This document shows, in pieces, positions 32,750 to 53,361 of a stretch of 64,000 bases of DNA. The notes below the pieces were generated by a model. It had not been told where the DNA came from and searched no databases. It saw nothing but the letters and a program-made list of their open reading frames with translations. A program made the position numbers and the translations under genes. Numbering within the stretch: the stretch's first letter is position 1; every line of letters begins with the position of its first letter. This DNA comes from Amycolatopsis sp. DSM 110486 (lineage in GTDB: Bacteria; Actinomycetota; Actinomycetes; Mycobacteriales; Pseudonocardiaceae), in the NCBI RefSeq assembly GCF_019468465.1, contig NZ_CP080519.1, positions 6,875,001 through 6,939,000 on the forward strand, written 5' to 3'.

Positions 32750-34084
32750 TCAGGACCGGAACCGGGTGATCTTCGCGAGGTGGCGTTCGCGGGTCTCGTG
32801 GTCCTCGACGCCCTGGTCGGTGCCCTGGGCGAGGCACAGCACGCCGACCTTGCCGTTGTGCTGGTTGGTGTGGACTTCCTGGACCGCCTGGCCGATCCGG
32901 TCGAGCGGGTACACCGTGGACAGCGTCGGGTGGATCATGCCCCGGGTGATGAGGCGGTTCGCTTCCCAGGCTTCGCGGTAGTTGGCGAAGTGGGTGCCGA
33001 CGATGCGCTTGAGACGCATCCAGAGGTGCCGGTTGTCGTAGACGTGTTCGTAGCCCGAGGTGGAAGCGCAGGTGACGATCGTGCCGCCGCGACGGGCGAC
33101 GTAGACGCTGGCACCGAAGGTTTCGCGACCGGGGTGCTCGAAGACGATGTCGGGGTCGGTGCCGCCGGTGAGGTCGCGGACCAGGGTGCCGAACCGCTTC
33201 CACTCGCGGGGGTCCTGCACGTTTTCCTCCGGCCAGAAGCGGAATCCTTCGGCCTTGCGGTCGATCACCAGCTCGCCTCCCATGGCGCGGACGAGCTCCG
33301 CCTTGCGGGGGCTGGACACGACGCACACCGGGATGCCGCCGCCGTTGAGCACGAGCTGGGTGGCGTAGGAGCCGAGGCCGCCGGCCGCGCCCCAGATCAG
33401 GACGACGTCGCCCTGTTTCATGGTGGCGCCGTTGCGGGAGACGAGCTGCCGGTAGGCCGTCGAGTGCACCAGGCCGGAGGCGGCGGCCTCCTCCCAGGTC
33501 AGGTGGCCGGGCTTCGGCATGAGCTGGTTCGCCTTCACCAGCGCGAGTTCGCCGAGGCCACCGTAGTTGGTCTCGAACCCCCAGATGCGCTGCTCCGGGT
33601 CGAGCATCGAGTCGTCGTGCCCGTCGGGGTCCGTGAGCTCGACGTTCAGGCAGTGCGCGACGACGCGGTCGCCGGGCTTGACCGAGCGGACCGCCGCCCC
33701 GATGCGCAGGACCACGCCGGACAGGTCGGAACCCACGACGTGGAACGGCTGGTCGTGCTTGCCGGCGCCGGGCACGGTCCTGGCGTAGCGCTGGAGGAAA
33801 CCGAACGTGGGCAACGGCTCGAACAGCGCGGTCCACACCGTGTTGTAGTTGACGCTGCTGGCCATCACCGCCACCAGGACTTCGTCGGGCCCGACCTCGG
33901 GGGTGGCGACCTGCTGGACGTGCAGCGCCTTGGCCGGATCCTTGTCCGCGGTGGCCATGCCCTCGAACATGTCCGACTCCGCGGCGAGAACCACGGCGGC
34001 GCGGTAGCTCTCCGGCACGGGCACCGAACCGATCTCGTCGGCGGAAATGTTCTCGGCCGTGACGGCCGCGACGATCTGTTTCAC
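32750..34084 (-). CDS. ccr: Crotonyl-CoA carboxylase/reductase
   Basis: The protein has 444 residues, the standard length. This medium-chain dehydrogenase carboxylates enoyl-CoAs: VVGSDLSGVVLRIG, ELALVKANQLMPKPGHLTWEEAAASGLVHSTAYRQL and the NADPH loop IWGAAGGLGSYATQL are visible, with FEHPGRETFGAS and GTHFANYREAWEANRLI of the CO2-binding region. It converts crotonyl-CoA (or longer enoyl-CoA) to ethylmalonyl-type extender units. It lies at the left edge of the NRPS/PKS cluster in one transcript with an FMN reductase and a type II thioesterase, so it probably supplies the PKS rather than the ethylmalonyl-CoA pathway. Confidence 0.95.
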   Translation of the reverse strand: MKQIVAAVTAENISADEIGSVPVPESYRAAVVLAAESDMFEGMATADKDPAKALHVQQVATPEVGPDEVLVAVMASSVNYNTVWTALFEPLPTFGFLQRYARTVPGAGKHDQPFHVVGSDLSGVVLRIGAAVRSVKPGDRVVAHCLNVELTDPDGHDDSMLDPEQRIWGFETNYGGLGELALVKANQLMPKPGHLTWEEAAASGLVHSTAYRQLVSRNGATMKQGDVVLIWGAAGGLGSYATQLVLNGGGIPVCVVSSPRKAELVRAMGGELVIDRKAEGFRFWPEENVQDPREWKRFGTLVRDLTGGTDPDIVFEHPGRETFGASVYVARRGGTIVTCASTSGYEHVYDNRHLWMRLKRIVGTHFANYREAWEANRLITRGMIHPTLSTVYPLDRIGQAVQEVHTNQHNGKVGVLCLAQGTDQGVEDHETRERHLAKITRFRS

Positions 34085-34677
34085 CGTGTTCCTCCGGGTC
34101 CTTCGCCGTGGACGATCTGCTCGCGCAGGGCAGCCAGCACCTCGCGCAGCCGCTGGGCGGCCTGGTGGTCGATGAGGTGCCCGGCGCGGTCGAAGCGGTC
34201 GTGCGCGGCCGACACGAGCAGTTCCGGCCCGCTCAGCACGCGGTGGCCGTACCCGGCCAGCAGCTGCCGCAGCGCAACCTGCCCTCGTACGGTGCCGAAA
34301 CCGCCGGGCGAGACGCCGATGACGGCGACGTCCTTGCGAAGCAGCGGAGTGCTCATCGCCGGACGGACGAGCCAGGCGAGCGCGGTGCGCACGACCTCGG
34401 GCACCGCGAACGTGAGTTCCCCGGTCGCGATCAGGAGCCCGTCGGCCTTCGCCACCGCCGCGCGCAGATCGCGCGCGGCCGGCGGAAGCCGGCTCTCGGT
34501 GTCCTCGTCGCGGTCGTAGCGCGGCACCTGCGCGAGTCCTTCGTGGATCTCGATCGTGACGCCGGCGGGCGCGAGCCCACGCGCCGCGTGCAGCAGCGCG
34601 GTGTTCGGCGAGCCCGCCCGCCCGCTGCCCGACATCGCGAGGATGCTGACGTCGTCCTCGGAACCCGTGGTGCTCAT
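34081..34677 (-). CDS. NADPH-dependent FMN reductase family protein
   Basis: The protein has 198 residues from ATG 34677, overlapping the thioesterase stop (ATGA). Flavodoxin-like fold: ILAMSGSGRAGSPNTALL at the N terminus and KADGLLIATGELTFAVPEVVRTALAWL; AVIGVSPGGFGTVRGQVALRQLL is the typical FMN-reductase segment. It may deliver reduced flavin to the luciferase-type monooxygenase encoded at 42400-43575 in this cluster. It overlaps crotonyl-CoA carboxylase/reductase by four bases. Confidence 0.88.
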   Translation of the reverse strand: MSTTGSEDDVSILAMSGSGRAGSPNTALLHAARGLAPAGVTIEIHEGLAQVPRYDRDEDTESRLPPAARDLRAAVAKADGLLIATGELTFAVPEVVRTALAWLVRPAMSTPLLRKDVAVIGVSPGGFGTVRGQVALRQLLAGYGHRVLSGPELLVSAAHDRFDRAGHLIDHQAAQRLREVLAALREQIVHGEGPGGTR

Positions 34678-35585: not shown

Positions 35586-35887
35586 GTGCGCCGTGGTGGG
35601 CCGGGAGCACGCTGGACTCGGGTACCGGTCTGGATGTTCCGAGCGGGTTCGACGCGCGTCGGCGTGATCGACGGCGACCAGGCGACGCAGCCGGCAGGTC
35701 GCCTAGACGCGCCGGCGGGAAACCGTCGCGCGCGCCCGTTCGCGGTCGTCGGGTGGAGGGGATGACGCGTGAACGCGTTCGATGCGAATCCGGTGTTCGC
35801 CGCAGTGGCGCCTCGTGCGGGCCGGGGGTGGTCGGCACCGCGGTGCCGGGCCCGGCCGGAAGGGCGCGAGGGCCGGACAGGCCGGTC

Positions 35888-36424
35888 GTGCTGAACCTTC
35901 CGGAGTCGGCCTTCGTGTCGGATCCGCCGGTGCGGGCCACGGAGACCTTTCCCGAGGCGTTGCGCCGTCTGCGAAAACGGGCCGGCATGACCCAGCAGGA
36001 GCTGGCCGACTTCGCCACGTTGAGCGTGCGCGCCATTCGCAACCTCGAACAGGACCGGGTGCGTCGGCCGCGCGCGGAGACGGTGAAGCTCCTCGCGGAC
36101 GCGCTGCGGCTGCCGGCGGAGGACCGGCGGCTCCTGGAAACCCTGGCGCGGGGCGGCGATGTCGTGGCCGAGCCGCCGCCGTACCCGCCGTTGCGGCTGG
36201 CCGAGCCGCGCCCGCGCGACGGCGAGATCCACTTCCTGGCCCGGTTGCTCGTCGAGGCGCGGCGCCGCAAGCTCGTGTCGACCGAGTGCGGCGGTGCCGA
36301 ATCCCGCGGCGAGACCGTGATCGCCGCGACGCGGGGCGACGGGACCGACGGCGAGTGGCGGGTGCTGTGGGTGGTCTCCACCCCGGATCCCGGCGCGGAC
36401 GACGGCACCGGGACGTCACGATGA
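35888..36424 (+). CDS. XRE-type helix-turn-helix regulator
   Basis: About 178 residues if begun at GTG 35888. In-frame ATG 35762 (GGAGGGG directly before it) would add 42 arginine-rich residues; the start is unsettled. The HTH reads FPEALRRLRKRAGMTQQELADFATLSVRAIRNLEQDRVRRPRAETVKLLADAL, the form found at the N terminus of BTAD/NB-ARC regulators. The usual ATPase part is absent; a short C-terminal domain of about 80 residues follows. It is the first gene of the plus-strand unit leading to the SagB-like oxidase and is likely a pathway regulator. Confidence 0.85.
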   Translation: MLNLPESAFVSDPPVRATETFPEALRRLRKRAGMTQQELADFATLSVRAIRNLEQDRVRRPRAETVKLLADALRLPAEDRRLLETLARGGDVVAEPPPYPPLRLAEPRPRDGEIHFLARLLVEARRRKLVSTECGGAESRGETVIAATRGDGTDGEWRVLWVVSTPDPGADDGTGTSR

Positions 36425-36621: not shown

Positions 36622-36645
36622 CCACTCGACCTCTGAGGTGTGATC

Positions 36646-38028
36646 ATGGTGGTGCCGACAGCCGGGCTGGCCGACGTCTCGCTCCGAGAGGTCTGGACCA
36701 GCATGGCGGTGGTCAGCGAAGCCCAGGAGTTCCGCCCGGTGCCGAAGGTGGGCGACGGCTTCGCCCGGGCGTTGCGGATCGTGCACGACGCACTGCTCGG
36801 GCCGAGCGGCGGGGCCGGCCGGCCGGTCCCCTCGGCCGGCGCGATCTTCCCGTACGACGTCCTGGTGCTGACTGACGAGCCGGGCTCCGCTCCGGGTCTT
36901 TTCCGCGTCGACGCGGTGCGCCGCGCCTGTGTGCGGCTGCTTCTGCCGGCTCCGGCCCTGCGCGCAGTGGTCCAGGCCATGCCGCGGGCGGCCGGTGTGA
37001 CCCGTGACGTGTGGGCGATCCTGCTGTCCCGGCCGTGGCTTTCGGTGCGCAAGTACGGGCCGCGCGGGTACCTCTACGCGCAGCTCGACACCGGGCACGC
37101 CGCGACCAGCCTGCTGGGTGGCGCACTGGCGACCGGCCCCGCGGAGCTGCACCTGAAACTCGCGCGCCGACAGATCCAGAAGGCGTTGTGGGGACTGCTG
37201 CCGTTTCGCGAGCCGCACTCGGTGCTGGCCATCGGCCCGGCGCCGGTCGAGGCCGGACCCGACCTGCTGCCGGTGGTCGAACCACTGCACGCGGTGCGGA
37301 CCGACTCCCACGGCGATCTCGAGCGCTTCGGCTGGGCGATGCTGCCGGACGGACTGGCCACCGGTGCCGACACCCCCGGCACCTCGGCGGCGGTCCCGAC
37401 GTCCGTGGTCCCGGGCGCCGGGCCGGGGATCCCGGCGGGGGACTGGCTGAGGTGGACCCGCGCGAGGCGGTCCTGCAACCAGTTCCGGGCCCGGCCCGTC
37501 GCCGGCTCCGCCCTGTCCGACGCGCTCGGGGCGCTCGGCACCAGGCTGGTCACGGACCTCGACGGCGCGCCGTCGGAGCTGCGCCTGACCCTCGTGGTCA
37601 CCACCGACGAGGTCGCCGCCGCGTGTCGCGCGGCCTGGCGCGGCACGGGCGTGGACGTCGTGGTGTCGGCGCCGGCCGACGACCCCGACCACATCCGCCG
37701 GCTGTGCATGGGGCAGCGCCACCTCGGTGGCGCCAAGGCGTTCCTGGTGTGCCATGTGGACGGACGGACCACCCTCGGCCGTGGCAGCACCCAGGTTTTC
37801 CGCGAAGCGCTCTTCCGCGCCGCCGCGGCGGCGCACCTCGTCTACCTCGGCGCCGCACGGGCCGGGGTGGCGGTGACCTCGGTCGGCGGCTACGACATCG
37901 ACGGCTGGCGGCTCCTGGCGGGCCTGGGACCGGACGACGAACCGGTGTACCTGATGGCACTCGGCGAGGACGGTGCCGGTCGCGTCAAGCAGGACCGCGC
38001 CGCGATCGCCTACGCCCACGGTGAATGA
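36646..38028 (+). CDS. SagB/nitroreductase-type FMN oxidoreductase
   Basis: The protein has 460 residues from ATG 36646 (GAGG seven bases upstream). Two nitroreductase-like halves: the first has RPVPSAGAIFPYDVLVLTDE as in SagB-type dehydrogenases; the second begins RARRSCNQFRARPVAG and ends AAAAHLVYLGAARAGVAVTSVGGYDIDGWRLLAGLG. Relatives oxidise azolines to azoles in RiPPs and in NRPS lines (McbC/BlmIII-like). No cyclisation domain is visible in the NRPS genes here, so the substrate is uncertain. It lies 20 bases before the AMP-ligase gene and starts the building-block operon. Confidence 0.75.
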   Translation: MVVPTAGLADVSLREVWTSMAVVSEAQEFRPVPKVGDGFARALRIVHDALLGPSGGAGRPVPSAGAIFPYDVLVLTDEPGSAPGLFRVDAVRRACVRLLLPAPALRAVVQAMPRAAGVTRDVWAILLSRPWLSVRKYGPRGYLYAQLDTGHAATSLLGGALATGPAELHLKLARRQIQKALWGLLPFREPHSVLAIGPAPVEAGPDLLPVVEPLHAVRTDSHGDLERFGWAMLPDGLATGADTPGTSAAVPTSVVPGAGPGIPAGDWLRWTRARRSCNQFRARPVAGSALSDALGALGTRLVTDLDGAPSELRLTLVVTTDEVAAACRAAWRGTGVDVVVSAPADDPDHIRRLCMGQRHLGGAKAFLVCHVDGRTTLGRGSTQVFREALFRAAAAAHLVYLGAARAGVAVTSVGGYDIDGWRLLAGLGPDDEPVYLMALGEDGAGRVKQDRAAIAYAHGE

Positions 38029-38047
38029 GACGAGAGGAGCCGAGGAC

Positions 38048-39502
38048 ATGACTGTGCTCGACCAGGTGCTCACCGAGCACTTCGCCCGCCACCGTGACGC
38101 CGCCCTGGTCGCGGACACGCGGGGCGTGCTCACCGGGGCCGAGCTGGCCGGCGCTGCCGGGCGCTTCGCGGCGGAAGCCGCCGCCTGGTGGAACGGCACC
38201 GGTGCCACCCGCCGTGACGGCAGGGTCCGGGTGCTCGTGTCGGCCGCGAACTCCGCGGCCTACGTCGCCGCCTACGCCGGGATCCTGCACGCCGGCGCGG
38301 TTCCGTTCCTGATCGACCCGGCGCTGGGCGGCGACGAGTTCACCAGCGTGGTCGAAAGCTGCGGGATCGACGTCGTGCTGCACGACCGCGATCTGCCCGC
38401 GACAGCGCGACCGGGCGCCCGCACGGAGCTCGGCGGCTTCCGGCTCACCGAGGTCGCCGGCGGTCCGCGGCCGGAGCTGCTCGCCGGCACCGAGGTCTGC
38501 CGGTTCACCTCCGGCACCAGCGGGACACCGAACTGCATCGAGTTCTCCGGCACCGCGGTCCACAACGCCGCCGTCGCCTGGAAGGAGGCGACGGCACTGG
38601 CACCCGCCGACCGGGTGCTGTGCTTCGCCGGTCTGTTCAACGGGTTGGCCTACAACACTTCCCTGCTCGCCTCGATCCTCGCCGGCGCGTGTCTGTGGCT
38701 GCCGTCGGGGCTGCCCAGCGCCGGGCACGTGACCAGGTTCCTCCGTGAGCTCGCCCCGACCCGGCTGGTGGGGTTCCCTGCGCTGTACGAAGCGTTGCTG
38801 CGCAAGGAAGGCGAGGTGCCCGAGCTCGCCGGGGTCCGGGTGGCGCTGTCCTCGGCCGCGCCACTGAGCGAGCAGACCGCCCAGGACCTGCTGCGGCGCC
38901 ACGGCCTGGCCGTCTCGAACTACTACGGGATCGCCGAGGCCGGGCCGCTGACCTTCGACCCGGTACCCACCCCGGAGGGTGGGCTCGGCCTGCCTCTGCC
39001 CGGCGTGCGGTTCCGGCTCGACGACGGCGAGATCAAGGTGCGCAGTGAGTCGATGGGGTCGCGGTACCTCAACGTGCCCGGCGCGTTCGAACGCAAGGTG
39101 GGCGCCGACGGGTTCTACGCCACCGCGGACGAGGGCTTCTTCGACGACCGGGGCAGCTTGCACCTGCGCGGCCGGGTCGGCAAGGCGCTGAACATCGCCG
39201 GGCGCAAGCTCGACGGCGAGGAGATCCGCCGGGTGGTCCTCGACGCGGGGTGCGCCGACGCCGTCGTCTTCGCCGACCGCAAGAACAACGGCGACCCCGT
39301 TCTCGTGGCGGTGGTCGCCGGTGCCGGGGCGCCGGACGAGCGCGCGCTGCGCTCGTGGTGCCACGCGCGGCTGGCCGCGCACAAGGTGCCCGAGCGGTTC
39401 GTGCGCGTCGAGGCGATTCCCCGCACCAGCCTCGGGAAGCTGCGGATGGCCGCGGTCCAGGAGTTGTTCCACGAGGCCATCGCGACCTCGCCAGCACGGT
39501 GA
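38048..39502 (+). CDS. Stand-alone AMP-dependent acyl/aminoacyl ligase
   Basis: The protein has 484 residues from ATG 38048. The ANL fold shows CRFTSGTSGTPNCIEFSG (P-loop; the usual PK is PN here), SNYYGIAEAGPLTF, FYATADEGFFDDRGSLHLRGRVGKALNIAGRKL and the lysine of RTSLGKLRMA. It should adenylate a carboxylic acid and load it on the free ACP encoded 16 bases downstream. The asparagine replacing the P-loop lysine is unusual but seen in some ligases. The substrate cannot be predicted with confidence. Confidence 0.88.
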   Translation: MTVLDQVLTEHFARHRDAALVADTRGVLTGAELAGAAGRFAAEAAAWWNGTGATRRDGRVRVLVSAANSAAYVAAYAGILHAGAVPFLIDPALGGDEFTSVVESCGIDVVLHDRDLPATARPGARTELGGFRLTEVAGGPRPELLAGTEVCRFTSGTSGTPNCIEFSGTAVHNAAVAWKEATALAPADRVLCFAGLFNGLAYNTSLLASILAGACLWLPSGLPSAGHVTRFLRELAPTRLVGFPALYEALLRKEGEVPELAGVRVALSSAAPLSEQTAQDLLRRHGLAVSNYYGIAEAGPLTFDPVPTPEGGLGLPLPGVRFRLDDGEIKVRSESMGSRYLNVPGAFERKVGADGFYATADEGFFDDRGSLHLRGRVGKALNIAGRKLDGEEIRRVVLDAGCADAVVFADRKNNGDPVLVAVVAGAGAPDERALRSWCHARLAAHKVPERFVRVEAIPRTSLGKLRMAAVQELFHEAIATSPAR

Positions 39503-39518
39503 CAAGGAGAAAGACACG

Positions 39519-39785
39519 ATGCCGGACGCCCAGGAGATGTACACCAGCGTCGCGAACCTCGTCGCGGAGTCGAGCGACGGCGTGATGACGGCGGCCGACG
39601 CCACGCGCCCGGGCCACACCCTGGTCGAGCTCGGTCTCAGCTCGCTCGCGTACCTGCGCCTGATCGACGCGATCGAAAACCGCTACGGGGTCTACATCGA
39701 CCTCGAGGAGGCGGCCGGGAAACTGGGCACCGTCGAGCAGATCGTCGACTACATGGTGAGTCAGGGCGCGGTCAGTGGCGCTTGA
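39519..39785 (+). CDS. Free-standing acyl/peptidyl carrier protein
   Basis: The protein has 88 residues, from ATG 39519 with AAGGAG. A small four-helix carrier with LVELGLSSLAYLRLIDAIEN; the second Ser of GLSSL (Ser42) should carry phosphopantetheine, although the usual Asp before it is Ser. It is probably the tether on which the acid activated by the preceding ligase is oxidised by the dehydrogenase and monooxygenase encoded behind it. The downstream gene overlaps its 3' end by 11 bases. Confidence 0.9.
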   Translation: MPDAQEMYTSVANLVAESSDGVMTAADATRPGHTLVELGLSSLAYLRLIDAIENRYGVYIDLEEAAGKLGTVEQIVDYMVSQGAVSGA

Positions 39786-40491
39786 TCCGGCCGGCGACCT
39801 GACGGTCGGCATCGTCGGCGTGACGGGCCGGCTCGGTTCGCGGATCGCGAGCGAGTGCGCCGCGCAAGGCATCCCGGTGGTGCTGCGGGCCACCCGCGGC
39901 GGCTGGAGCCAGGACGCCGTGCCGTCGGTGGTGATCGACGCCGGTACCGCCGAGGCGCTGCCCGAGACCACGCGGTTCTGCGCGCGCCACGGTGCCGCGC
40001 TGGTCGAATGCGTGTCGGCACTGGGCCAGGACGGCCCGGCGCTGCTCGACCGGCTGGCCGAGCGGGTCGCCGTGGTGCGCGCCGTGAACCTCTCCGTGGG
40101 GCACTGGCTCCAGCGCCACCTCGTCGCCACCGTCGCGCGGATCGCCGGCGCGCTGCCCGCGACGCCGCGCGCGGCCGTGCTGGAACGGCACACGCCAACC
40201 AAACGCGACCGGCCGAGCGCGTCCGCGCTCGCCCTGGCCGGGGTCTGGCGCGACGGCGGGCAGCCGCCGGTCGACGAAGTCGTGTCGCTGAGGGCCGGCC
40301 ACCCCGTCAGCGAGCACACCGTCCGCCTCGACCTGGAGGACGAGTCACTCGAGCTGCGTCACGACGTTCGCGATCTGCGCGCGGCCGCGTTCGGCGCCGT
40401 GACCGCGGCCCGCTGGGCGCACACCGCGGAACCGGGACTGGTTCCGCTGCAGCACCTGTTCGATCGGCTGTTCCTCGAGGAGACAACGTGA
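39775..40491 (+). CDS. DapB-like (dihydrodipicolinate-reductase family) protein
   Basis: The protein has 238 residues from GTG 39775, overlapping the ACP gene. The N terminus has the nucleotide loop VGIVGVTGRLGSRIASEC. The middle has VNLSVGHWLQRHLV, and VLERHTPTKRDRPSASALALA matches the DapB catalytic stretch, keeping the first His, the Lys and the Asp-x-Pro-Ser but not the second His or the Gly-Thr. True DapB makes tetrahydrodipicolinate for lysine/peptidoglycan; here it is probably a recruited imine or enone reductase in secondary metabolism. Its presence inside this operon is unusual. Confidence 0.75.
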   Translation: MALDPAGDLTVGIVGVTGRLGSRIASECAAQGIPVVLRATRGGWSQDAVPSVVIDAGTAEALPETTRFCARHGAALVECVSALGQDGPALLDRLAERVAVVRAVNLSVGHWLQRHLVATVARIAGALPATPRAAVLERHTPTKRDRPSASALALAGVWRDGGQPPVDEVVSLRAGHPVSEHTVRLDLEDESLELRHDVRDLRAAAFGAVTAARWAHTAEPGLVPLQHLFDRLFLEETT

Positions 40492-41243
40492 CCACCACCG
40501 ACAAACCCGCACTCTCGCGTGAGCTCCGCCCGGTCGACCTGCGGATGCGCGTCCTGGTGTCCCTGGCGGCGCGGTCGCTGTCGCTCGGCGGTCACGACGA
40601 CTTCAACCAGGGGCAGGTTTCGGCGCGCCTGCCCGGCGCGGACTACATGCTGATCAAGGGCGCCGTGCGCGGTTTCGACGAGTGCTGCCCCGACGACGTC
40701 ATCGTCGCCCCGATCGACCACCGGATCGCCGCGCACCCGATGGCGCCGCCGGAGCTGCCGCTGCATCAGGCCGTGTACTCGGCCCGGCCGGACGTCAACG
40801 CGGTCGTGCACAGCCACGCGCCGCACACGCTGGTGTTCGGGGCCACGGACCTCGAGATGCGCCCGGTTTCCCACGACGGCGCCTACTTCGAGCACCGGTT
40901 GCCGAGGTTCACGATGGTCACCAACACCATCCTCGACATCGAAACCGGGCTCGGTGTCGCCGAGGCACTGGGCGACGCCCCGGCGGTGTTGCTACGCAAC
41001 CACGGTGGTGTCGTCGTGGGCGAGTCGATCAAACACGCGACGGTGCACGCGCACACGCTGGAGCGCGCGTGCGGGCTCCAGCTGATCGCCGAGCAGCAGC
41101 CGGGCGGTTACCACTGGTCCCCGCCGAAGGACGTCGAGGCGAAGCGCGAGTACATCTACGCGGACCTGTCCGTGCGGTCGTACTGGGACTACTGCGTCAG
41201 CAAGGTGAAGCGCACCTGGCCGGAGGCCCGGACATGGTCGTGA
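40488..41243 (+). CDS. Class II aldolase/adducin family protein
   Basis: The protein has 251 residues from GTG 40488, overlapping the DapB-like stop (GTGA). The zinc site of the family is visible: [13 protein letters not shown] (HSHxxH) and [25 protein letters not shown] is the conserved HG loop, and ELPLHQAVY carries the Glu. Members such as fuculose-phosphate aldolase cleave or form C-C bonds by retro-aldol chemistry or act as decarboxylases/epimerases. In this operon it could make or trim the acid that the ligase activates. It overlaps the dehydrogenase gene by 10 bases. Confidence 0.88.
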
Positions 41244-42373
41244 CCCCCTGCTTCGCGACCGAGGAGCAGGCCGAGCTCCACACGGTGGTGGCGAAGTTCG
41301 CCCGCGACGAGCTGCCGGCGCGGGCCGGCGAGGCGGAGGAAGCGGCGCGCTTCCCGCGAGAGCTCGTCCGGCACGCGCTCGGCCTCGGCGTCGCGGCTGT
41401 GCCGTTCGACGCGCGGTGGGGCGGCGGCGGGCAGCCGTACGTCTTTTTCCTCCAGCTGCTGGAAGAACTGGCCCACGGCTGGTTCGCCGTGGCCGAATCC
41501 GTGCACCTGCAGGTCCTCGCCTCCCACGGCCTCGCCGCGTTCGGCACCGAGGAGCAACGCGAGAGCGTGCTCACCCGGTTGCTGACCGGCGAGCTGCTGG
41601 GCGCCACCTGCATGTCCGAGGCTGCGGCCGGCTCGGACCTCGGCGCCGTCGCCACCCGCGCCGAGCTCGCCGGCGAGGCGTACACCTTGTCGGGCACCAA
41701 GTCCTGGGTGAGCCACGGCGGGGTCGCCGACGTCTACAACGTCTACTGCCGCACCGGCTCGGGAACCGGGCTGGCCGGGCTTTCGTGCCTGCTGGTGGAC
41801 GCGACGGCCGACGGGGTGCACCCCCAGCGGCACGAACGCAAGATGGCGGTGAACACCGTGCCCACGGCGCAGATCGTGTTCGACGACGTCCGGGTGCCGG
41901 CGGGCCGGCTCGTCGGGCGGCGCGGCCGCGGCATGCTGGTCGCGGCCCACGTGTTCGACCACGGCCGGCTCGGCATCTCGGCGTGCGCGGTCGGCCTCGC
42001 GCAGGCCGCGCTCGACGAGGCCGTGGCGTACGCGAAGCAGCGCACCGAGTCCGGCCGGCCCTTGATCGCCGCCCAGGGCACCGCGTTCCTGCTGGCCGAC
42101 CTGGCCACGCAGGTCGCCGCCGCGCGGGCCCTGCTGCACGCCACCGCCCGCCTCAAGGACACCGGACGTCCGTTCTCCACCGAGGCGGCCAAGTCCAAGC
42201 TCTTCGCCACCGACACCGCCGTGCGGGTGACCACCGACGCGATGCAGGTCCTCGGCGACGACGGCTACACGCGCGACTTCCCGCTCGAGCGGTACCTGCG
42301 GGAGGCCAAGCTGCTCCAGATCATCGAAGGCACCAACCAGATCCAGCGCAACGCCGTCGCGGCGAGCCTGTGA
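41234..42373 (+). CDS. Acyl-CoA/acyl-ACP dehydrogenase of the cluster
   Basis: The protein has 379 residues from ATG 41234. Complete acyl-CoA dehydrogenase: [69 protein letters not shown], with the catalytic Glu in IIEGTNQ. Beside an AMP ligase and a free ACP, such enzymes usually desaturate the ACP-bound acyl or aminoacyl group (as in pyrrole or enoyl starter formation). It overlaps the aldolase gene and is followed after 26 bases by the monooxygenase. Confidence 0.92.
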
Positions 42374-42399
42374 CCCGCCCGTACCCCGAGAGGAAAGCC

Positions 42400-43575
42400 A
42401 TGTCTTCGTTGCGTTTCGGTGCCTTCATGTCGCCCCTGCACCCCGTCGGGGAGGATCCCACTCTGCTGCTGCAGAGAGATCTCGAGATCGTCCAGCGGCT
42501 GGACGAGCTGAACTACGACGAGGTCTGGATCGGTGAGCACCACTCGTCCGGCTGGGGATCCATTTCCTCCCCGGAGGTCGTCCTCGCCGCCGCCGCCGAG
42601 CGCACCCGCCGGATCCGCGTGGCCACCGGGGTCACGGCGCTGCCCTACCACCACCCGTTCATGGTGGCCGAGCGGGCGGTGCAGCTGGACCACCTGACAC
42701 GGGGCCGGTTCATGCTCGGGGTGGGAGCCGGCTCGGTCATCGGTGACATGCACATGATGGGCGTCGCGCCCGCCGACACCCGCCGCCGCACGGAACAGTC
42801 CCTCGAAGTGATCGTGCGGCTGCTGCGCGGGCACGTCGTCACCCACTCCACCGACTGGTTCGCCCTGGCGGACGGCCGGCTGCAGCTGCAGCCGTTCACG
42901 CCGGGCGGGTTCGAGATCGCCGTGGCGAGCGCCGCGTCGCCGTTCGGCATGCGCCTGGCCGGGCGGCTGGGTGTCTCGGCCCTCTCGCACGCGGCGCCGC
43001 CGTGGGGCGCGATGCGCGCGGGGCACGGGATCGGTGTGGAGAAGCTGGCGGGACAGTGGCAGCACCTCGCCGAAGCGGCGGACGCGGCGGGCCACGAGGC
43101 GTCGCGCTCGAGGTGGCGGCTCGCCGTCCCGGTCCACGTCGCGCACTCCCGCGACGAAGCCGTCGAGCAGGTGTACGGCGGCTGGCTGCGCCAGCGCGTG
43201 GAGCTGTGGACGGAAACGATGGGCATGCCCATGGGGCGCGGGGATGCTGCGGCCCGCAAGGCATTCGAGTCCACGGTCGACGCCGGCGGTATCATTCTCG
43301 GCGACGTGGACGACTGTGTCGCAGGTGTTCAGAAGCTGCAGGAAGCCAGTGGGGGATTCGGAACTTTGCTGCTGTCGATCCAGCATTGGGCCCGCCACGA
43401 GCACACCGTGGAAAGCCTCGACCTCTTCGCCCGCCACGTCGCTCCCCGCTTCACCGGTTCCGCCGAGGGCCTGCGCGCCTCGCAGAGCTGGGCGGCGGCC
43501 AGCAAGGCGATTTTCCAGCGGGAGAACCACGAAGCCCGCACCCAGGTGACCAGCGGACAGGAGACCGCCCGATGA
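42400..43575 (+). CDS. Luciferase-like flavin-dependent monooxygenase
   Basis: The protein has 391 residues from ATG 42400 (GAGAGGA upstream). TIM-barrel LLM features are LRFGAFMSPLHPVGEDP, YDEVWIGEHHSSGWGSISSPEVVLAAAAERT, RIRVATGVTALPYHHP and GRFMLGVGAGSVIGD, close to the alkanal-monooxygenase/LadA branch. It uses reduced flavin and oxygen, possibly supplied by the FMN reductase at 34081-34677. Likely chemistry: hydroxylation, Baeyer-Villiger or N-oxidation of the ACP-bound unit or final product. The transporter gene overlaps its stop (ATGA). Confidence 0.9.
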   Translation: MSSLRFGAFMSPLHPVGEDPTLLLQRDLEIVQRLDELNYDEVWIGEHHSSGWGSISSPEVVLAAAAERTRRIRVATGVTALPYHHPFMVAERAVQLDHLTRGRFMLGVGAGSVIGDMHMMGVAPADTRRRTEQSLEVIVRLLRGHVVTHSTDWFALADGRLQLQPFTPGGFEIAVASAASPFGMRLAGRLGVSALSHAAPPWGAMRAGHGIGVEKLAGQWQHLAEAADAAGHEASRSRWRLAVPVHVAHSRDEAVEQVYGGWLRQRVELWTETMGMPMGRGDAAARKAFESTVDAGGIILGDVDDCVAGVQKLQEASGGFGTLLLSIQHWARHEHTVESLDLFARHVAPRFTGSAEGLRASQSWAAASKAIFQRENHEARTQVTSGQETAR

Positions 43576-44825
43576 CGCAGGTCGAACCGAAGGCCCCAGG
43601 CCGTACCCGCATCGGGCGGGACCTCTGGATCCTCACGTTCTGCCAGTTCCTCTACTACGGCGGCACGAGCGTCGACCTGACCCTCACGGCCGTCGTGGGC
43701 CTGCACCTGGCCCCCACCCCGGCACTGGCGACGGCGCCGCTGACCGCGATGACGACGGTCGCGGTGATCGCCTCGTACGGGACCGGTGTGCTGGCCGCCC
43801 GGTTCGGCCACCGGCAGGTGCTCGCCGTCGGCGCGTTCCTCGCTGTGGTCGGCGGGCTCGTCTCGGTCTACGCCACCATCACCGGGTCCTTCTGGGTGCT
43901 CTGCGCCGGCACCGCGATCGTCGGCCTGTACAAGGCGACGGGCGGCTACTTCCGGTACCTGGCCACGGATCTCGCACCCGAGCACCAGCGGGAGCGGGCA
44001 CTGAGCATCGTGCTGACCGGCGGCGTGCTGGCGGCGATCATCGGCCCGCTCGCGGCCACCTGGGCCAGCGACCTGTTCCGGGCCGAGTTCGCGGGGTCCT
44101 ACCTCCTGGTGGCCATCCTCGGTGCCGTGACGGTGCCACTGGTGATGGCGGTCCGCAGCCCCGCGCGGCGGCGCGCGGCCACCGCCGTGGCCGCTGCCGC
44201 CACCACGGCCGCGGCCGTGGTGCAGGTTCGCGTGCGCGAGGTGGTCCGCACCAGCAACTTCATCGTCGCGTTCGCGCTGCTGGCGGTGTCGGGCGGGGTG
44301 ATGACGCTGTTGATGGCCGTCGGGCCGATCGGCAGCGAGCACGCCGGGCACACCCTCGGCGAGGGCGCCATGGTGATCCAGTGGCACCTGATCGGCATGT
44401 TCGCGCCGTCACTGATCAGCGGCAAGCTCGTGTCCCGCTGGGGCGCCGACCGCACCGGCCTCATCGGCGCCGCGGTGCTGCTCGCGGGTGCGGTCGTCGG
44501 CGCGTCCGGCCTCGGCCTGACCGCCTTCACGGTGTCGCTCGGCCTCGTCGGCGTGGGCTGGAACCTGCTCTACGTCGCGGGAACCGCGTTCGTGATCCGC
44601 ACCTACCCGGCCGGCGGCGGCGGGCGGGTGCAGGGGGTCATGGAGGCGACGACCGCCGTCGTGTCGGGTGCGGCTTCCTTCTCCGCCAGCCCGATCTTCC
44701 TGTCGCTGGGCTGGCAGGGCACCAACGTCGCCGCGGGTCTGTTCCCACTGGTGCTCGTGATCGCCATGGTTTTCGTGTACCGCAACGGTCGCCGGCAGAA
44801 GGCGCTCGAACCGCAACTCGGCTGA
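43572..44825 (+). CDS. MFS exporter of the cluster
   Basis: The protein has 417 residues, 12 predicted membrane helices. It begins WILTFCQFLYYGGTSVDLTLTAVVGLHL, with GTGVLAARFGHRQVLAVGAF as the loop 2-3 motif and a second half from about residue 225 (NFIVAFALLAVSGGVMTLLM). It resembles drug/proton antiporters. It is the last gene of the building-block operon, probably exporting the product or giving self-resistance. A strong terminator follows within 13 bases. Confidence 0.9.
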   Translation: MTQVEPKAPGRTRIGRDLWILTFCQFLYYGGTSVDLTLTAVVGLHLAPTPALATAPLTAMTTVAVIASYGTGVLAARFGHRQVLAVGAFLAVVGGLVSVYATITGSFWVLCAGTAIVGLYKATGGYFRYLATDLAPEHQRERALSIVLTGGVLAAIIGPLAATWASDLFRAEFAGSYLLVAILGAVTVPLVMAVRSPARRRAATAVAAAATTAAAVVQVRVREVVRTSNFIVAFALLAVSGGVMTLLMAVGPIGSEHAGHTLGEGAMVIQWHLIGMFAPSLISGKLVSRWGADRTGLIGAAVLLAGAVVGASGLGLTAFTVSLGLVGVGWNLLYVAGTAFVIRTYPAGGGGRVQGVMEATTAVVSGAASFSASPIFLSLGWQGTNVAAGLFPLVLVIAMVFVYRNGRRQKALEPQLG

Positions 44826-44881: not shown

Positions 44882-46168
44882 TCAGGCCGGGAAACGCCGG
44901 CCGTGCAGGAGCGCGTGCATGCCGAGCAGCACACCGCGGACGTGCTCGGCCGTGGTGTCCCTGGCTCGCAGGCGGAACGTGACACCCGCCTTGCCGTGGT
45001 CGATGGCGCGCAGGTAGAAACGCGGGCCGATGGCGTGGAACGGCTCGGCCCAGGTGATCCGCGGCTCCGTGTCGTCGAGCGGGTCGATGGCTGCGTCGGT
45101 GGTGAAGAAGTTGAACGACCACACGGATTCCGGTTCCGAGCCGGCCGCGGTGACGCGCGTCCGCAGCTCGGCGACGCGGTCGAGGTCGTAGACGCCGAGG
45201 CGGTAGGCCTGGAGGCCGAGCTGGTTGACGCGGACGATCACGTCGTCGAACGGTTCGCCCGGCTCTGCGTCGACCTGGGTCGGCGCCCAGGAGTTCAGCG
45301 ATGTGACGTACTGCTGCAGGCGCGCGGAAAACCGGTTGGAGGAGATCAGCCGGACCGGCAGCGACCACGTGTCGTGGACGTGGCCGGCAGCGACCAGGTA
45401 CGCGCTCAGCAGCACCGAAGAGAGCGACACGCCCAACCGGTCGGCCGTCTCCTGTGCGGCCACTCGGGCGGTCTCCGAGCTGAGCGCGGCGAGCAGCACG
45501 GGGGAGTCGTGCTCGGCGAACGGCCCGCCGCCGGCGCCGGCCGGCGCGGGGGTGGCGTAGGTGGCCGTGAGCATGCGTTCCCAGTGCCGCAGGGCGGCGT
45601 CGTGCTTGGCGCGGAACTTCTCGGAGCGCTGCTCGTTCGCGAGGTCCACGAGGTGGTAGGCGGCCTCGGCCGGCGCGGGTGCTCCCGGGCCGGTGAGCTC
45701 GGCCAGCACCTCCTCGCACAGCAGCCGGCGGCTGAACGCGTCGGCGGTGATGTGATGGTTGGCGAAGACGATGTGGCCGGCACGGAACCCGTCGGTCACG
45801 ATTCGCGCCCGCCAGCTGAAGTCGCTGCGCAGGTCGAACGGTTCGCGCGCCGCCTCGTCGGCCACCTCGCCCAGCTCGGCCCGTTCGGCGGTGACGACCT
45901 CGACGTCGAGCGGCCCGCCCGGTGCGTTCACGGTCTGCGTGGGGTTCTTCTTGTCGGTGAGGTCGTAGGTGGTCCGCAACGAGTCGTGCCGGGCGGCGAC
46001 GACGTCGAACGCGGCGCGGACCCGGTCGGTGCTCACCGGGACCGGAACCGGCCACAGCTCGGCGCCGTTCGGCTCGTGCCACCGGTGTCTCGGGTGGAAC
46101 TCGACGTCACGCCAGCAGGAAAGCTGTCCGAACGTCAAGGGCCCGGTCAGGGTTCCGGATGGTTTCAT
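44882..46168 (-). CDS. Free-standing NRPS condensation-domain protein
   Basis: The protein has 428 residues from ATG 46168 (GAGG upstream). One condensation domain: LTFGQLSCWRDVEFH at the start, the active site VFANHHITADAFS (HHxxxD kept, the following Gly replaced by Ala), RLISSNRFSARLQQYVTSLNSW and VWSFNFFTTD. No carrier or adenylation domain. It could join chains held on separate carriers or release the product by amide/ester formation. It is divergent from the large NRPS gene with a shared 150-base promoter region. Confidence 0.9.
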   Translation of the reverse strand: MKPSGTLTGPLTFGQLSCWRDVEFHPRHRWHEPNGAELWPVPVPVSTDRVRAAFDVVAARHDSLRTTYDLTDKKNPTQTVNAPGGPLDVEVVTAERAELGEVADEAAREPFDLRSDFSWRARIVTDGFRAGHIVFANHHITADAFSRRLLCEEVLAELTGPGAPAPAEAAYHLVDLANEQRSEKFRAKHDAALRHWERMLTATYATPAPAGAGGGPFAEHDSPVLLAALSSETARVAAQETADRLGVSLSSVLLSAYLVAAGHVHDTWSLPVRLISSNRFSARLQQYVTSLNSWAPTQVDAEPGEPFDDVIVRVNQLGLQAYRLGVYDLDRVAELRTRVTAAGSEPESVWSFNFFTTDAAIDPLDDTEPRITWAEPFHAIGPRFYLRAIDHGKAGVTFRLRARDTTAEHVRGVLLGMHALLHGRRFPA

Positions 46169-46319: not shown

Positions 46320-49300
46320 GTGCGTAGCTCATCCGGTGCCGACGAGTTCGAGCCCGCTCTAGTCGGCGAAGGCGCCCCGGGCGCCGAATGGCAGTCGATC
46401 GCGCTGGCCACCCGGCTCCCGTGTGGGGTGCCGGGCGAAAGAGCGTGGCTGGGCGCTTGGGCGATCGCACTGGGCGCCACCCTGGGCCGCACCGAGGTCT
46501 GCTTCGGCGCAGGCGAGGACACCGTGTTCGCCCACCTCGATCCCGACCGCACGGTGGCCGAGCTGCTCACCGGTCTGGACCACCGCAGTGGACACAGGAA
46601 AGGGCGCTACGACACGGCTTTCGGGGAGAGCGGCGACAAGGACGTGGTCGTGGTCGTCGACCGGGGTGTGCTGCGCCACCGCACGGACGCCGCCCGGGCC
46701 CGGTCGCTGGCCGTGCGTCTCGAACTCGCACTGGCGGCCGTCGTCACCACCCCCGGCGCCCGCCTGCGGGAGCTCGACCTGCTCACCCGGCAGGAACGCG
46801 AAGATGCGCTCGTGGGCTGGCAGGGCGAGGTCGTCGAGCTGCCGGCCACGACGCTGCCGGACCTGATCACCGAGACCGTCCGGCGTGTGCCCGCCGCGAC
46901 CGCGCTGCGTTTCGAGGGTGCCTCGGTCACCTACGCCGAGCTGGCGGCGCGCGCCAACCGGCTGGCTCACCACCTGAGCGCGCTCGGGGCCGGGCCGCGA
47001 AGCGTGGTGGCGGTGGCCGTCCCGCGGTCGGTGGAGCTGGTCGTCGCCCTGCTGGCGGTGCACAAACTGGCCGCCGCCTACCTGCCGCTCGACCGCGACC
47101 ACCCGCGCGAGCGGCTGGCGACGGTGCTCGAGGAGGCGCGGCCCGCAGTGGTCCTGACCACCGGCCCGGAGGCCGATCTGCCGGACGGTCACCCGGTGCT
47201 GGCGCTGGACGACCCCGCCGTGGTGGCTGCGCTCGAGGCCGAACCTGAGACACCTCCGTCGATCCGCGTGGCCGGGGACGACCCGGCCTACGTCATCTAC
47301 ACCTCCGGGTCGACCGGGCGGCCCAAGGGTGTCGTGGTCACCCACGCGGCGATCGTGAACCGGTTGCTGTGGATGCAGTCGCGCTACCCGCTCACCGAGT
47401 CGGACCGGGTCGTGCAGAAGACCCCGATCACCTTCGACGTGTCGGTGCCGGAACTGTTCGGCCCGCTGATCGCCGGCGCGGTGCTCGTGCTCGCGCGCCC
47501 GGGCGGGCACCGGGATCCGGCCTACCTCGCCGGGCTTTTCACCGGTGAAGGTGTGACGTGCGCACATTTCGTGCCGTCGATGCTCCAGGTCTTCCTGCAG
47601 GACCCGGCAGCCGCGCGCTGCGCCTCGCTGCGCCGGATCTCCTGCAGCGGCGAAGCGCTGTCTCCGCAGACCCGGGACCGGTGCCTGGCGCTGCTCGACG
47701 TGCAATTGCTGAACCTTTACGGGCCGACGGAGGCCGCGGTCGAGGTGACCTACTGGGACTGCGGCGGCGACGAGCCCGGCGCACCGGTGCCGATCGGGCT
47801 GCCGGTCTGGAACACGAGGCTGTACGTGCTGGACGCGGTGTCCCGGCCCGTCCCGGTGGGAGTTCCCGGCGAGCTGTACCTCGCGGGCGCCCAGCTCGCC
47901 ATCGGGTACCTCAACCGTCCGGACCTGACCGAGGAACGGTTCGGCTCCGATCCGTTCGGTCCGCCGGGCAGCCGCATGTACCGGACCGGTGACGTGGTCC
48001 GCCGGCGCGCCGACGGAGTGGTCGAGTACCTCGGGAGGGCCGACGACCAGGTGAAGATCCGCGGCTTCCGCGTGGAGCTCGGCGAGGTCGAGTCCGTGGT
48101 GCGGCGGGCGCCGGGGGTGGTTCACGCCGCCGTCGTCGTGCGCCCGGACCGGTTCGGTGAGCCGCGGATCGTGGCCTACCCGGTGTCCGCCGGTGGTGTC
48201 CTCGACGTGGCGGCGCTGCGCGCGTTCGTCGCGGGCGTGGTGCCCGACTACATGGTGCCCGCTGCGTTCGTCCGGCTCGACGAATTGCCGGTGACCGCCA
48301 ACGGCAAGCTGGACCGCAAGCGGCTGCCCGAACCGGCCGCCGTGGCGACGGGCGCCGGCGGCAGTGCGCGGACCGAACGCGAGGCACAGCTGTGCCGGCT
48401 GTTCTCCGACGTGCTCGAACTGCCGGGGATCGGTGTGGGGGACGACTTTTTCGCGCTCGGCGGGCAGTCCCTGCTTGCCGTGCGGCTGCTGAGCCGGATC
48501 CGGACCGTGCTGGGCGCCGACCTCGACCTGGCCACGGTGTTCGACGCGCCGACCCCGGCGGAGCTCGCACGTGCCCTCGATGCCGCGGCCCCCCGGCCGG
48601 AGCGCCGTGCGTTGCGGCCGGCCTCCCGACCGGAGCGTGTTCCCCTTTCCGCGGCCCAGCGGGGGATGTGGTTGCTGAACCGGTTGGAGGGCCCCAGCGC
48701 CACCTACAACATCCCGCTGTCGTTGACCCTGCGCGGCCCGCTCGACGTGACGGCGCTCGGGGCGGCACTGCGGGAACTGGTGACCCGGCACGAGATCCTG
48801 CGCACCGGCTACCGCGAGATCGACGGCGCGCCGGTCCAGGTCGTGCGGGAGCCCCGGATTCCGCTCGACGTTGTGCGCGCCGAGCCGGCGGGGCTGGCCG
48901 ACCGGGTGCGCGTCGAAGCGCGGCGGCCGTTCGACCTCACACGCGACCCGGTCGTCCGGGCGACCTTGTTCGCGGTCACCGAGGAGCACCACGTGCTGCT
49001 GCTCGTCGTGCACCACATCGCCGGCGACGGCTGGTCGATCCGCCCGATCGCCGACGATCTCGCCGCCGCGTACCTTTCCGAAGTGGACGGAGTACCCGCG
49101 TCGCGGCCACCGCTTCCGATTCAATACGCGGATTACGCGCGCTGGCAGGCGGAAACGCTCGAACCGGTGCTGGCGGAGCAGCTGTCCTATTGGGAACGCC
49201 GGCTTGCCGGAGCGCCGGCCGAACTCGCCTTGCCTGCCGACCGGCCGCGGCCGGCAGGCGGGGAGAGTTCGGCCCACCGGGCTGGCCTGGTCGAGTTCAC

Positions 49301-52644: not shown

Positions 52645-53361
52645 TCAGGACACGTCCATCGGCGCGCGGACGCACCGGTCCAGCTCGGCGATGAGGTTCC
52701 CGGGATTCTCGGTGAAGTACATGTGCGCACCCGGCAGCGCCACGAAGTCCACCCCGGACCCGCCGACCTCGGCCCAGCCCGCGGCGTCGGCTTCGGACAC
52801 CAGCTCGTCGTGCTCACCGCGCAGCACTGTGATCGGCACGGGCAGCGGGAGCCGGGAGCTCGGCTCGTACTCGTCGGCGATGGTCATGTCCGCCCGCAGG
52901 GCGGGCAGGACGACCTCGCGCAGGTCCGGGTCGGCGAGGGCGGCGTGGCGGTAGCCGACGAGGTCGGCGAGCCGCGACACGAACTCGTCGTCGGACAGGG
53001 CGGCGGTGCCCAGCCGCACCCGGGGTGCCCAGGGCGAGGCGATGCCGCTCACCACGAGCCGCCGCGGGAGCGGCAGCGCCCGGGTGACGAGCGCCTGCGC
53101 CGTCTCGTAGGCCGCCAGTGCGCCGAAGCTGTGTCCGAAGAGGACGAACGGGCCGCCGGCCGCGGCCTCGGCGGCCTTCGCGGCCACCACGTCGACCACC
53201 TCGGCCATGGTGGTCAGCGGCTGGTCGAGGAACTGTTCCTCGCGCCCGGGCAGCTGCACCGGCACGAGCGACAGGCGATCGCCGGCGTGCTCGCGCCACT
53301 GCCGGAACAGGCTCGCACCGGCGCCGGCGAACGGCACGCACACCAGGCTGGTCGTCGTCAT
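52645..53361 (-). CDS. Type II thioesterase (second copy)
   Basis: The protein has 238 residues from ATG 53361, overlapping the A-PCP gene stop (ATGA). It has VCVPFAGAGASLFRQWREHAG, the nucleophile FVLFGHSFGALAAYETA, TVLRGEHDELVS and the catalytic His in LPGAHMYFTENP. It edits misprimed carrier domains. Its coupling to the A-PCP gene suggests it serves the NRPS part of the line, while the thioesterase at 34674 is coupled to the PKS extender gene. Confidence 0.92.
   Translation of the reverse strand: MTTTSLVCVPFAGAGASLFRQWREHAGDRLSLVPVQLPGREEQFLDQPLTTMAEVVDVVAAKAAEAAAGGPFVLFGHSFGALAAYETAQALVTRALPLPRRLVVSGIASPWAPRVRLGTAALSDDEFVSRLADLVGYRHAALADPDLREVVLPALRADMTIADEYEPSSRLPLPVPITVLRGEHDELVSEADAAGWAEVGGSGVDFVALPGAHMYFTENPGNLIAELDRCVRAPMDVS

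What the first reader, a model, noticed from the sequence alone, without database searches (positions are those of the whole stretch)
38048..43575. Building-block operon combining AMP ligase, free ACP, DapB-like reductase, class II aldolase, dehydrogenase and flavin monooxygenase
Seen: six genes in a row, most overlapping by 4-11 bases, placed inside an NRPS/PKS cluster. Known: ligase + ACP + acyl-CoA dehydrogenase sets make ACP-bound desaturated starter or extender units. A DapB-like imine reductase and a class II aldolase in the same unit is a combination I do not recognise from any described pathway. Inference: a new carrier-bound unit, possibly a cyclic imine or short hydroxy-acid derivative, is made here and used by the A-less NRPS units or the PKS.
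Basis: partly seen in the sequence, partly recalled or inferred. Interest (0 to 1): 0.75.

Follow-up and report, generated by a model that had tools for sequence, protein, structure and literature searches.

The report
Paulomycin-type carrier-bound acyl-unit cassette
This is a real set of genes that most likely makes one unusual acid building block on a carrier protein; the same core set occurs in dozens of other bacteria, including the published gene cluster for the antibiotic paulomycin, and the papers I could search do not say what chemistry its enzymes do.

Summary
The six genes are present and correctly named. The unit is larger: a SagB-like FMN dehydrogenase gene lies directly upstream (36640-38028) and a transporter gene downstream. 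The combination is not new. The core (SagB-like, AMP ligase, ACP, DapB-like, class II aldolase) lies together in 58 of 63 de-duplicated loci. Streptomyces milbemycinicus has the window's exact order, luciferase-like gene included. Paulomycin's pau33-pau39 is the same series apart from an inserted PPTase gene. There some members were proposed for paulic acid, two were unassigned, and the aldolase-fold gene was given to allose synthesis. Its constant company here argues that it belongs to the cassette instead. I read the window's set as a carrier-bound acyl-unit cassette serving a free condensation domain and an NRPS with two A-less modules. The ligase seems to lack the Asp that binds an alpha-amine. 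The DapB-like protein keeps the catalytic His/Lys but is not the lysine enzyme; a canonical copy sits elsewhere. Paulomycin's KASIII and sulfur genes were not found at window 30-57 kb. The acyl unit is unproven; the boldest open reading is a new route to isonitriles.

The parts
34081..34677 (-). NADPH-dependent FMN reductase; possible FMNH2 supplier for the LLM monooxygenase (inferred)
   Evidence: PF03358, 76 bits (stretch 34081-34689); gene call
35828..36424 (+). helix-turn-helix regulator; a family member also lies beside the cassette of L034
   Evidence: PF01381 and PF13560; family f68
36640..38028 (+).
   Evidence: PF00881 44.5 bits, above its cut-off; TIGR03605 30.8 bits, below its cut-off of 78.4; profile matches 3eo7 and BmdC oxidase in the PDB; SagB-like in 62 of 63 loci
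38048..39502 (+). AMP-forming acid:ACP ligase
   Evidence: PF00501 and PF13193; 62 of 63 loci; G463 and K464 invariant in 62 ligases; invariant N203 aligns with the Asp of NRPS A domains taken to bind the amino group (role of that Asp recalled)
39519..39785 (+). free acyl carrier protein (SSL motif)
   Evidence: PF00550; 60 of 63 loci by score, two more (L048, L071) by eye
39775..40491 (+). DapB-like reductase, not the lysine enzyme
   Evidence: PF05173 and PF01113 above cut-offs; TIGR00036 63.7 bits, cut-off 122; canonical copy at G000:C1:42975; R138, H139, K143, S148 invariant in the 58 sequences aligned; model pLDDT 94.1
40488..41243 (+). class II aldolase-fold metalloenzyme
   Evidence: PF00596 114.5 bits; E89, H108, H110, H172 invariant in all rows with a residue there, of 63; solved relatives 8il8, 8iqa, 3ocr, 8ix6, 2z7b and NovR 9ryg; model pLDDT 88.6
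41240..42373 (+). acyl-CoA dehydrogenase fold, presumed acyl-ACP desaturase
   Evidence: PF00441, PF02770, PF02771; below the cut-offs of all 21 NCBIfam models that it matches; 53 of 63 loci
42400..43575 (+). luciferase-like (LLM) flavin monooxygenase
   Evidence: PF00296 141.6 bits; 16 of 63 loci
43572..44825 (+). MFS exporter
   Evidence: PF07690 95.4 bits; MFS genes of two families near the cassette in 28 of 63 loci
44882..46168 (-). free-standing condensation domain, presumed acceptor enzyme for the acyl-ACP
   Evidence: PF00668 78.1 bits; family in 26 of 63 loci
46320..52595 (+). NRPS, read as A-T-C-T-C-T-TE, with two A-less modules
   Evidence: one AMP-binding, two Condensation, three PP-binding, one Thioesterase stretch; the order of the repeated domains is read from the translation
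53358..55115 (-). stand-alone A-T protein
   Evidence: PF00501, PF13193, PF00550

Best explanation
The operon is a member of a widespread cassette that builds one small, unusual acyl unit on a dedicated carrier protein; the pau33-pau39 series of paulomycin is its best-known relative. Likely working: the ligase adenylates a small carboxylic acid without a free alpha-amine and loads the ACP. On the ACP the SagB-like enzyme does an FMN-dependent oxidation and the DapB-like enzyme an NAD(P)H-dependent reduction at a C-N or C=C bond, and the class II aldolase-fold metalloenzyme makes or breaks a C-C bond (aldol, retro-aldol or decarboxylation). The dehydrogenase then desaturates the alpha,beta bond, and the LLM monooxygenase, fed by a flavin reductase, oxidises the unit further. 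The acyl group is finally handed to the free C domain or the NRPS. Shown: gene set, conservation, synteny, retention of catalytic residues. Inferred: substrate, order of steps, chemistry on the carrier, transfer. My best guess for the acyl unit is a C4 alpha-nitrogen-substituted 2-enoyl group of the paulic acid type, at about one in three. A corollary is that Pau37 belongs to this unit and not to allose synthesis, as its authors proposed.
For: All five core genes in 58 of 63 loci. All ten other loci of the same family that were picked by the DapB-like protein hold SagB-like, ligase, ACP and aldolase matches. Same order with LLM in L031 at 43/59/49/55/74/66/65 % identity. [quoted passage not shown] Release genes vary while the core stays: free C domain in 26 loci, KASIII in 10, never both. 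Catalytic residues invariant. Asn in place of the amine-binding Asp.
Against: No enzyme of the set was assayed. In paulomycin the link to paulic acid is bioinformatic for Pau34, 35, 38 and 39; knock-outs seen concern only the sulfur genes plm28 and plm29; Pau33 and Pau36 were unassigned, and Pau37 was assigned to D-allose synthesis. The same paper also says that an acyl-CoA ligase gene is lacking. KASIII, cysteine desulfurase and MoeZ-like genes were not found at window 30-57 kb, so its acyl unit may differ. 52 of the 62 de-duplicated relatives were found by their aldolase, so its presence there is by construction. The residue equivalence in the ligase rests on a gapped alignment.
Confidence: 0.7

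Rival explanations
1. The cassette makes a carrier-bound isonitrile (isocyano-acyl) unit by a new route; in paulomycin clusters a MoeZ-like protein with a rhodanese domain and a cysteine desulfurase then add sulfur to give the isothiocyanate.
For: The sulfur genes accompany only some cassettes: cysteine desulfurase 10 of 63, MoeZ-like 9 of 63. The MoeZ-like protein of L045 has ThiF and rhodanese domains. Stand-alone DJ-1 proteins lie in the neighbourhood in Nocardia (L063-L066) and Dactylosporangium (L084); those of L066 and L084 have isonitrile hydratase InhA as best solved match. L033 holds a related fragment cut by the locus end.
Against: DJ-1-type genes are common, 7 to 13 matches in each of five genomes searched. 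Of the nine loci counted with this family three (L025, L069, L086) encode regulators with an extra C-terminal part, not enzymes of the InhA size. The Poisson figure for three lineages uses a rate I chose after the fact. MoeZ-like genes also occur in L059 and L080 without a cysteine desulfurase found, and L026, L027 and L029 have the desulfurase without a MoeZ-like gene found. No known isonitrile synthase was noticed; none was searched for. No such gene was found in the window.
Confidence: 0.15
2. It makes a hydroxylated or cyclic-imine acid: the aldolase joins a keto acid to an amino-aldehyde and the DapB-like enzyme reduces the ring imine, as in lysine biosynthesis.
For: DapB fold and catalytic His/Lys retained.
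Against: The second His and the Gly of the canonical substrate motif are replaced. The only linked product, paulic acid, has no ring. No DapA-like gene was noticed among the neighbours, though none was searched for.
Confidence: 0.1
3. In paulomycin the aldolase-fold protein (Pau37) makes TDP-allose, as its authors proposed, and its neighbourhood with the ligase and ACP is incidental.
For: Proposal of the paulomycin authors from similarity to AraD.
Against: Homologues accompany the ligase, SagB-like, DapB-like and ACP genes in 58 of 63 loci, among them small clusters such as L028 with no sugar genes noticed beside them; in all ten loci picked by DapB the aldolase is there.
Confidence: 0.05
4. 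Proline-type pathway: ligase, carrier and dehydrogenase make pyrrole-2-carboxyl-ACP and the other genes are unrelated tailoring.
For: Ligase, ACP and ACAD occur together; the RedW and PigA models match the dehydrogenase weakly.
Against: RedW 189.7 of 650 bits and PigA 194 of 500; the amine-binding Asp seems to be missing in the ligase; ACAD is not found in 10 of 63 loci, in part because a contig ends, while DapB and aldolase stay in most of these.
Confidence: 0.03

Closest known systems
Paulomycin cluster pau33-pau39 / plm31-plm37 (Streptomyces paulus, S. albus J1074)
   Same: Same genes in the same order (oxidoreductase, ligase, ACP, DapB-like, aldolase-fold, ACAD); in L045, whose neighbours match the published order except that pau40 was not called, the homologues are 33-64 % identical to the window's
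   Different: Paulomycin adds a PPTase inside the series and KASIII, MoeZ-like and cysteine desulfurase genes upstream, and names no luciferase-like gene; the window has LLM, MFS, free C domain and NRPS instead
Kedarcidin cluster KedU31, AFV52195, KedU34
   Same: Listed by the paulomycin authors as homologues of Pau33, Pau34 and Pau35
   Different: Sequences not examined here; role in kedarcidin not seen
Streptomyces milbemycinicus locus L031 and Streptomyces sp. NRRL S-455 locus L032 (products not known to me)
   Same: SagB-like, ligase, ACP, DapB-like, aldolase, ACAD and LLM genes, 43-75 % identical; exact order in L031
   Different: L031 adds a GAPDH copy, a TauD-like oxygenase, an asparagine synthetase A-like and a glutamate-synthase-like gene; L032 is split into two opposed groups
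DapB (4-hydroxy-tetrahydrodipicolinate reductase)
   Same: Fold family, nucleotide motif, catalytic His and Lys (roles recalled)
   Different: Below the dapB equivalog cut-off; Arg before the His, second His lost, Gly to Ala in the motif

Membership tests
Pau33-39-type acyl cassette | SagB-like, ligase, ACP, DapB-like and class II aldolase genes adjacent | tested here: met
   Window 36640-41243; published order
Pau33-39-type acyl cassette | acyl-CoA dehydrogenase gene closing the series | tested here: met
   41240-42373; no PPTase gene in between, unlike pau38
Pau33-39-type acyl cassette | ligase loads the neighbouring ACP | not testable with these tools
   Needs a protein assay
Paulomycin biosynthetic cluster | KASIII-like transferase, cysteine desulfurase and MoeZ-like sulfur genes | tested here: not met
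   No member of families f15, f10, f18 at window 30-57 kb
Lysine-pathway DapB | score above the TIGR00036 equivalog cut-off | tested here: not met
   63.7 of 122 bits; a copy with the canonical motif elsewhere in the genome
SagB azoline dehydrogenase | score above the TIGR03605 cut-off | tested here: not met
   30.8 of 78.4 bits
Class II aldolase fold (PF00596) | Pfam cut-off and metal-binding His residues | tested here: met
   114.5 bits; E89, H108, H110, H172 invariant; their equivalence to the fuculose aldolase ligands is by spacing and recalled
Prolyl-carrier pyrrole pathway | dehydrogenase above the RedW or PigA cut-off | tested here: not met
   189.7 of 650 and 194 of 500 bits

The most novel reading that the evidence does not exclude
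The five-gene core is an undescribed isonitrile-forming pathway that works on a carrier protein. It is spread over many actinobacterial families and beyond, and supplies the precursor that a rhodanese domain turns into the isothiocyanate of paulomycin; the window would then make an isocyano-acyl peptide.
Probability: 0.13. Interest if true: 0.85.

Novelty: new variant of a known kind. Interest (0 to 1): 0.5.

Why it matters
[quoted passage not shown] The same core is now seen in 58 of 63 loci with different release genes, which regroups these genes into one unit and lets its chemistry be tested in many hosts. Some clusters look small enough for heterologous expression, for example L028 with the five core genes, a transporter and a condensation-domain gene. 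The window's version adds a monooxygenase and an NRPS, so its product is probably unlike paulomycin.

Tried and rejected
A single-sequence scan of genome contigs with the DapB-like protein found nothing; the aldolase alignment succeeded. Ten paper searches: searches returned no paper; 34 (91 papers, 25 listed), 42 (362, 30 listed), 50 (1), 56 (4) and 60 (2) listed nothing on this gene set that I recognised from titles and abstract starts; one gave two papers, both on paulomycin; one gave 17, of which those on paulomycin were the useful ones; 47 gave one, again the 2015 paulomycin paper. In the passages read I saw no assignment of the core's chemistry beyond the proposals cited. Most subscription journals are not in the library, so later work may exist. 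Considered and set aside: primary metabolism (a second DapB-family gene with the canonical motif sits elsewhere; the genome has eight matches to the aldolase, the other seven at 28-34 % identity); the pyrrole pathway; a GAPDH self-resistance copy in the window (the genome has two GAPDH matches, both outside it). A substrate could not be read from the ligase pocket beyond the missing Asp.
Full report
Observation. Three of five junctions overlap (11, 4, 4 or 10 bases), two are gaps of 16 and 26 bases. A SagB-like gene (36640-38028) precedes them by 19 bases and an MFS gene (43572-44825) overlaps the last one, so the transcription unit is probably eight genes. Around it lie an FMN reductase, a helix-turn-helix regulator, a free condensation domain, an NRPS with one A, two C, three T and one TE domain, a separate A-T protein, a P450 and a PKS gene that runs beyond the window.

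Relatives. The DapB-like protein occurs in 11 of 297 genomes of the same family at E 1e-20 or better, the window's own included. All ten other loci also give matches to the SagB-like, ligase, ACP and aldolase proteins (the SagB-like ones in part only fragmentary); the dehydrogenase is in eight of the ten and the LLM gene in four. A scan of the named genome collection with the aldolase alignment gave 57 loci. After removal of five duplicates there are 63 loci with the window: aldolase 63 (the query for 52 of them), ligase 62, SagB-like 62, DapB-like 61, ACP 60 (two more by eye), ACAD 53, free C domain 26 plus 4 of a second C-like family, MFS 28, LLM 16, KASIII 10; all five core genes in 58. Five of these rows were filled in by hand. 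The exceptions are L048 and L071 (ACP seen by eye), L061 and L079 (no DapB-like gene found) and L082 (only aldolase and DapB-like found). In L057 the LLM gene lies beyond the compact cluster, and in L066 and L084 the DapB-like gene lies apart from the rest. Hosts include Streptomyces, Kitasatospora, Nocardia, Gordonia, Micromonospora, Actinoplanes, Nocardiopsis, Arthrobacter, Kutzneria and Bradyrhizobium. In a ligase tree the window sits near L031, L035, L032, L030 and L034 with weak local support (86/27); neither the LLM-bearing nor the KASIII-bearing loci form one clade (at least two changes each), and several long branches make their own places unsure.

Known counterpart. I read passages, not whole texts, of PMC4425429, PMC4802897, PMC4753412 and PMC6151807. 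[quoted passage not shown] L045 has this order: SDR, KASIII, ThiF-rhodanese, cysteine desulfurase (opposite strand), regulator, core, PPTase, ACAD, GMC oxidoreductase, aldo-keto reductase; no pau40 was called, and the regulator and methyltransferase were not scanned. L043, L044 and L046 show the same families. [quoted passage not shown] The later paper knocked out plm28 and plm29 and lost paulomycin, and disagrees with the first on which transferase attaches paulic acid. The constant company of the aldolase-fold gene in clusters without other paulomycin genes argues against its sugar role.

Enzyme features. Ligase: the C-terminal Gly-Lys is invariant in 62 sequences, and invariant Asn203 aligns with the amine-binding Asp of NRPS A domains, so a free alpha-amino acid is an unlikely substrate; the alignment there is gapped. 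DapB-like: the His and Lys that are catalytic in DapB (recalled) are invariant, but the substrate motif differs from the canonical copy at G000:C1:42975. Aldolase fold: Glu89 and three His are invariant; solved relatives include entries called aldolase, the Mlr6791 protein and the decarboxylase NovR, so decarboxylation is as possible as aldol chemistry. SagB-like: two nitroreductase-type lobes, related to 3eo7 and, in the first lobe, to the NRPS oxidase BmdC. Models of the aldolase-fold and DapB-like proteins are confident (pLDDT 88.6 and 94.1); no fold search could be run.

Release and context. Free C domains (26 loci) and KASIII (10 loci) were not found in the same locus, as expected if one acyl-ACP is passed either to an amine or to a hydroxyl acceptor. 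The window is of the C-domain kind, and its A-less modules fit a unit supplied in trans; this last point is inference.

Hints about the product. GAPDH genes lie near the cassette in four loci (L020, L031, L035, L069), all with LLM: 4 of 16 against 0 of 47, Fisher p 0.003, chosen after the fact, with L031 and L035 close kin. Their genomes hold 2, 4, 5 and 2 GAPDH matches, so each has at least one further copy; but two copies are nothing special, as G132 (cassette, none nearby) and the window's genome also have two, while G043 and G065 have one. Some products may hit GAPDH; for the window there is no such sign. DJ-1 proteins like isonitrile hydratase and rhodanese-bearing sulfur genes fit an isonitrile precursor but are indirect.

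Verdict. A real, well-conserved building-block cassette, a variant of the one in paulomycin, whose core chemistry I could not find determined. The combination is not new, the LLM/NRPS setting makes it a variant, and the unresolved chemistry is the interesting part.

Noticed in passing
L020:2790-3761, L031:12546-13553, L035:13218-14225, L069:19332-20360: GAPDH genes beside LLM-bearing cassettes, possibly self-resistance copies
   Followed up: partly
L063-L066 (about 4300-5000), L084:8007-8645, L033:1-525: Stand-alone DJ-1 proteins in the cassette neighbourhood; the two that were searched (L066, L084) match isonitrile hydratase InhA best among solved structures
   Followed up: partly
L037:14528-15967 and L079:12096-13355: Serine hydroxymethyltransferase genes in the cassette neighbourhood (L037 by model; L079 by its sequence); they could supply glycine or one-carbon units
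   Followed up: no
window 38507-38536: The ligase P-loop reads TSGTSGTPNC where A domains of the same cluster end in PKG; Cys163 is conserved in 61 of 62 ligases
   Followed up: no
L067 (Actinomyces sp. oral taxon 170): A paulomycin-like arrangement (KASIII-like, MoeZ-like, core cassette, glycosyltransferase-like gene, by similarity) in an oral actinomycete
   Followed up: no
window 32750-34084: Zinc-binding dehydrogenase that looks like a crotonyl-CoA carboxylase/reductase (name from recall; Pfam shows only ADH domains), perhaps supplying an extender unit to the PKS
   Followed up: no
L072, L074-L077, L081 (Nocardia species): The cassette sits beside MmpL-family transporter genes (one scanned, L081) instead of MFS genes, so the product may be exported differently there
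   Followed up: no
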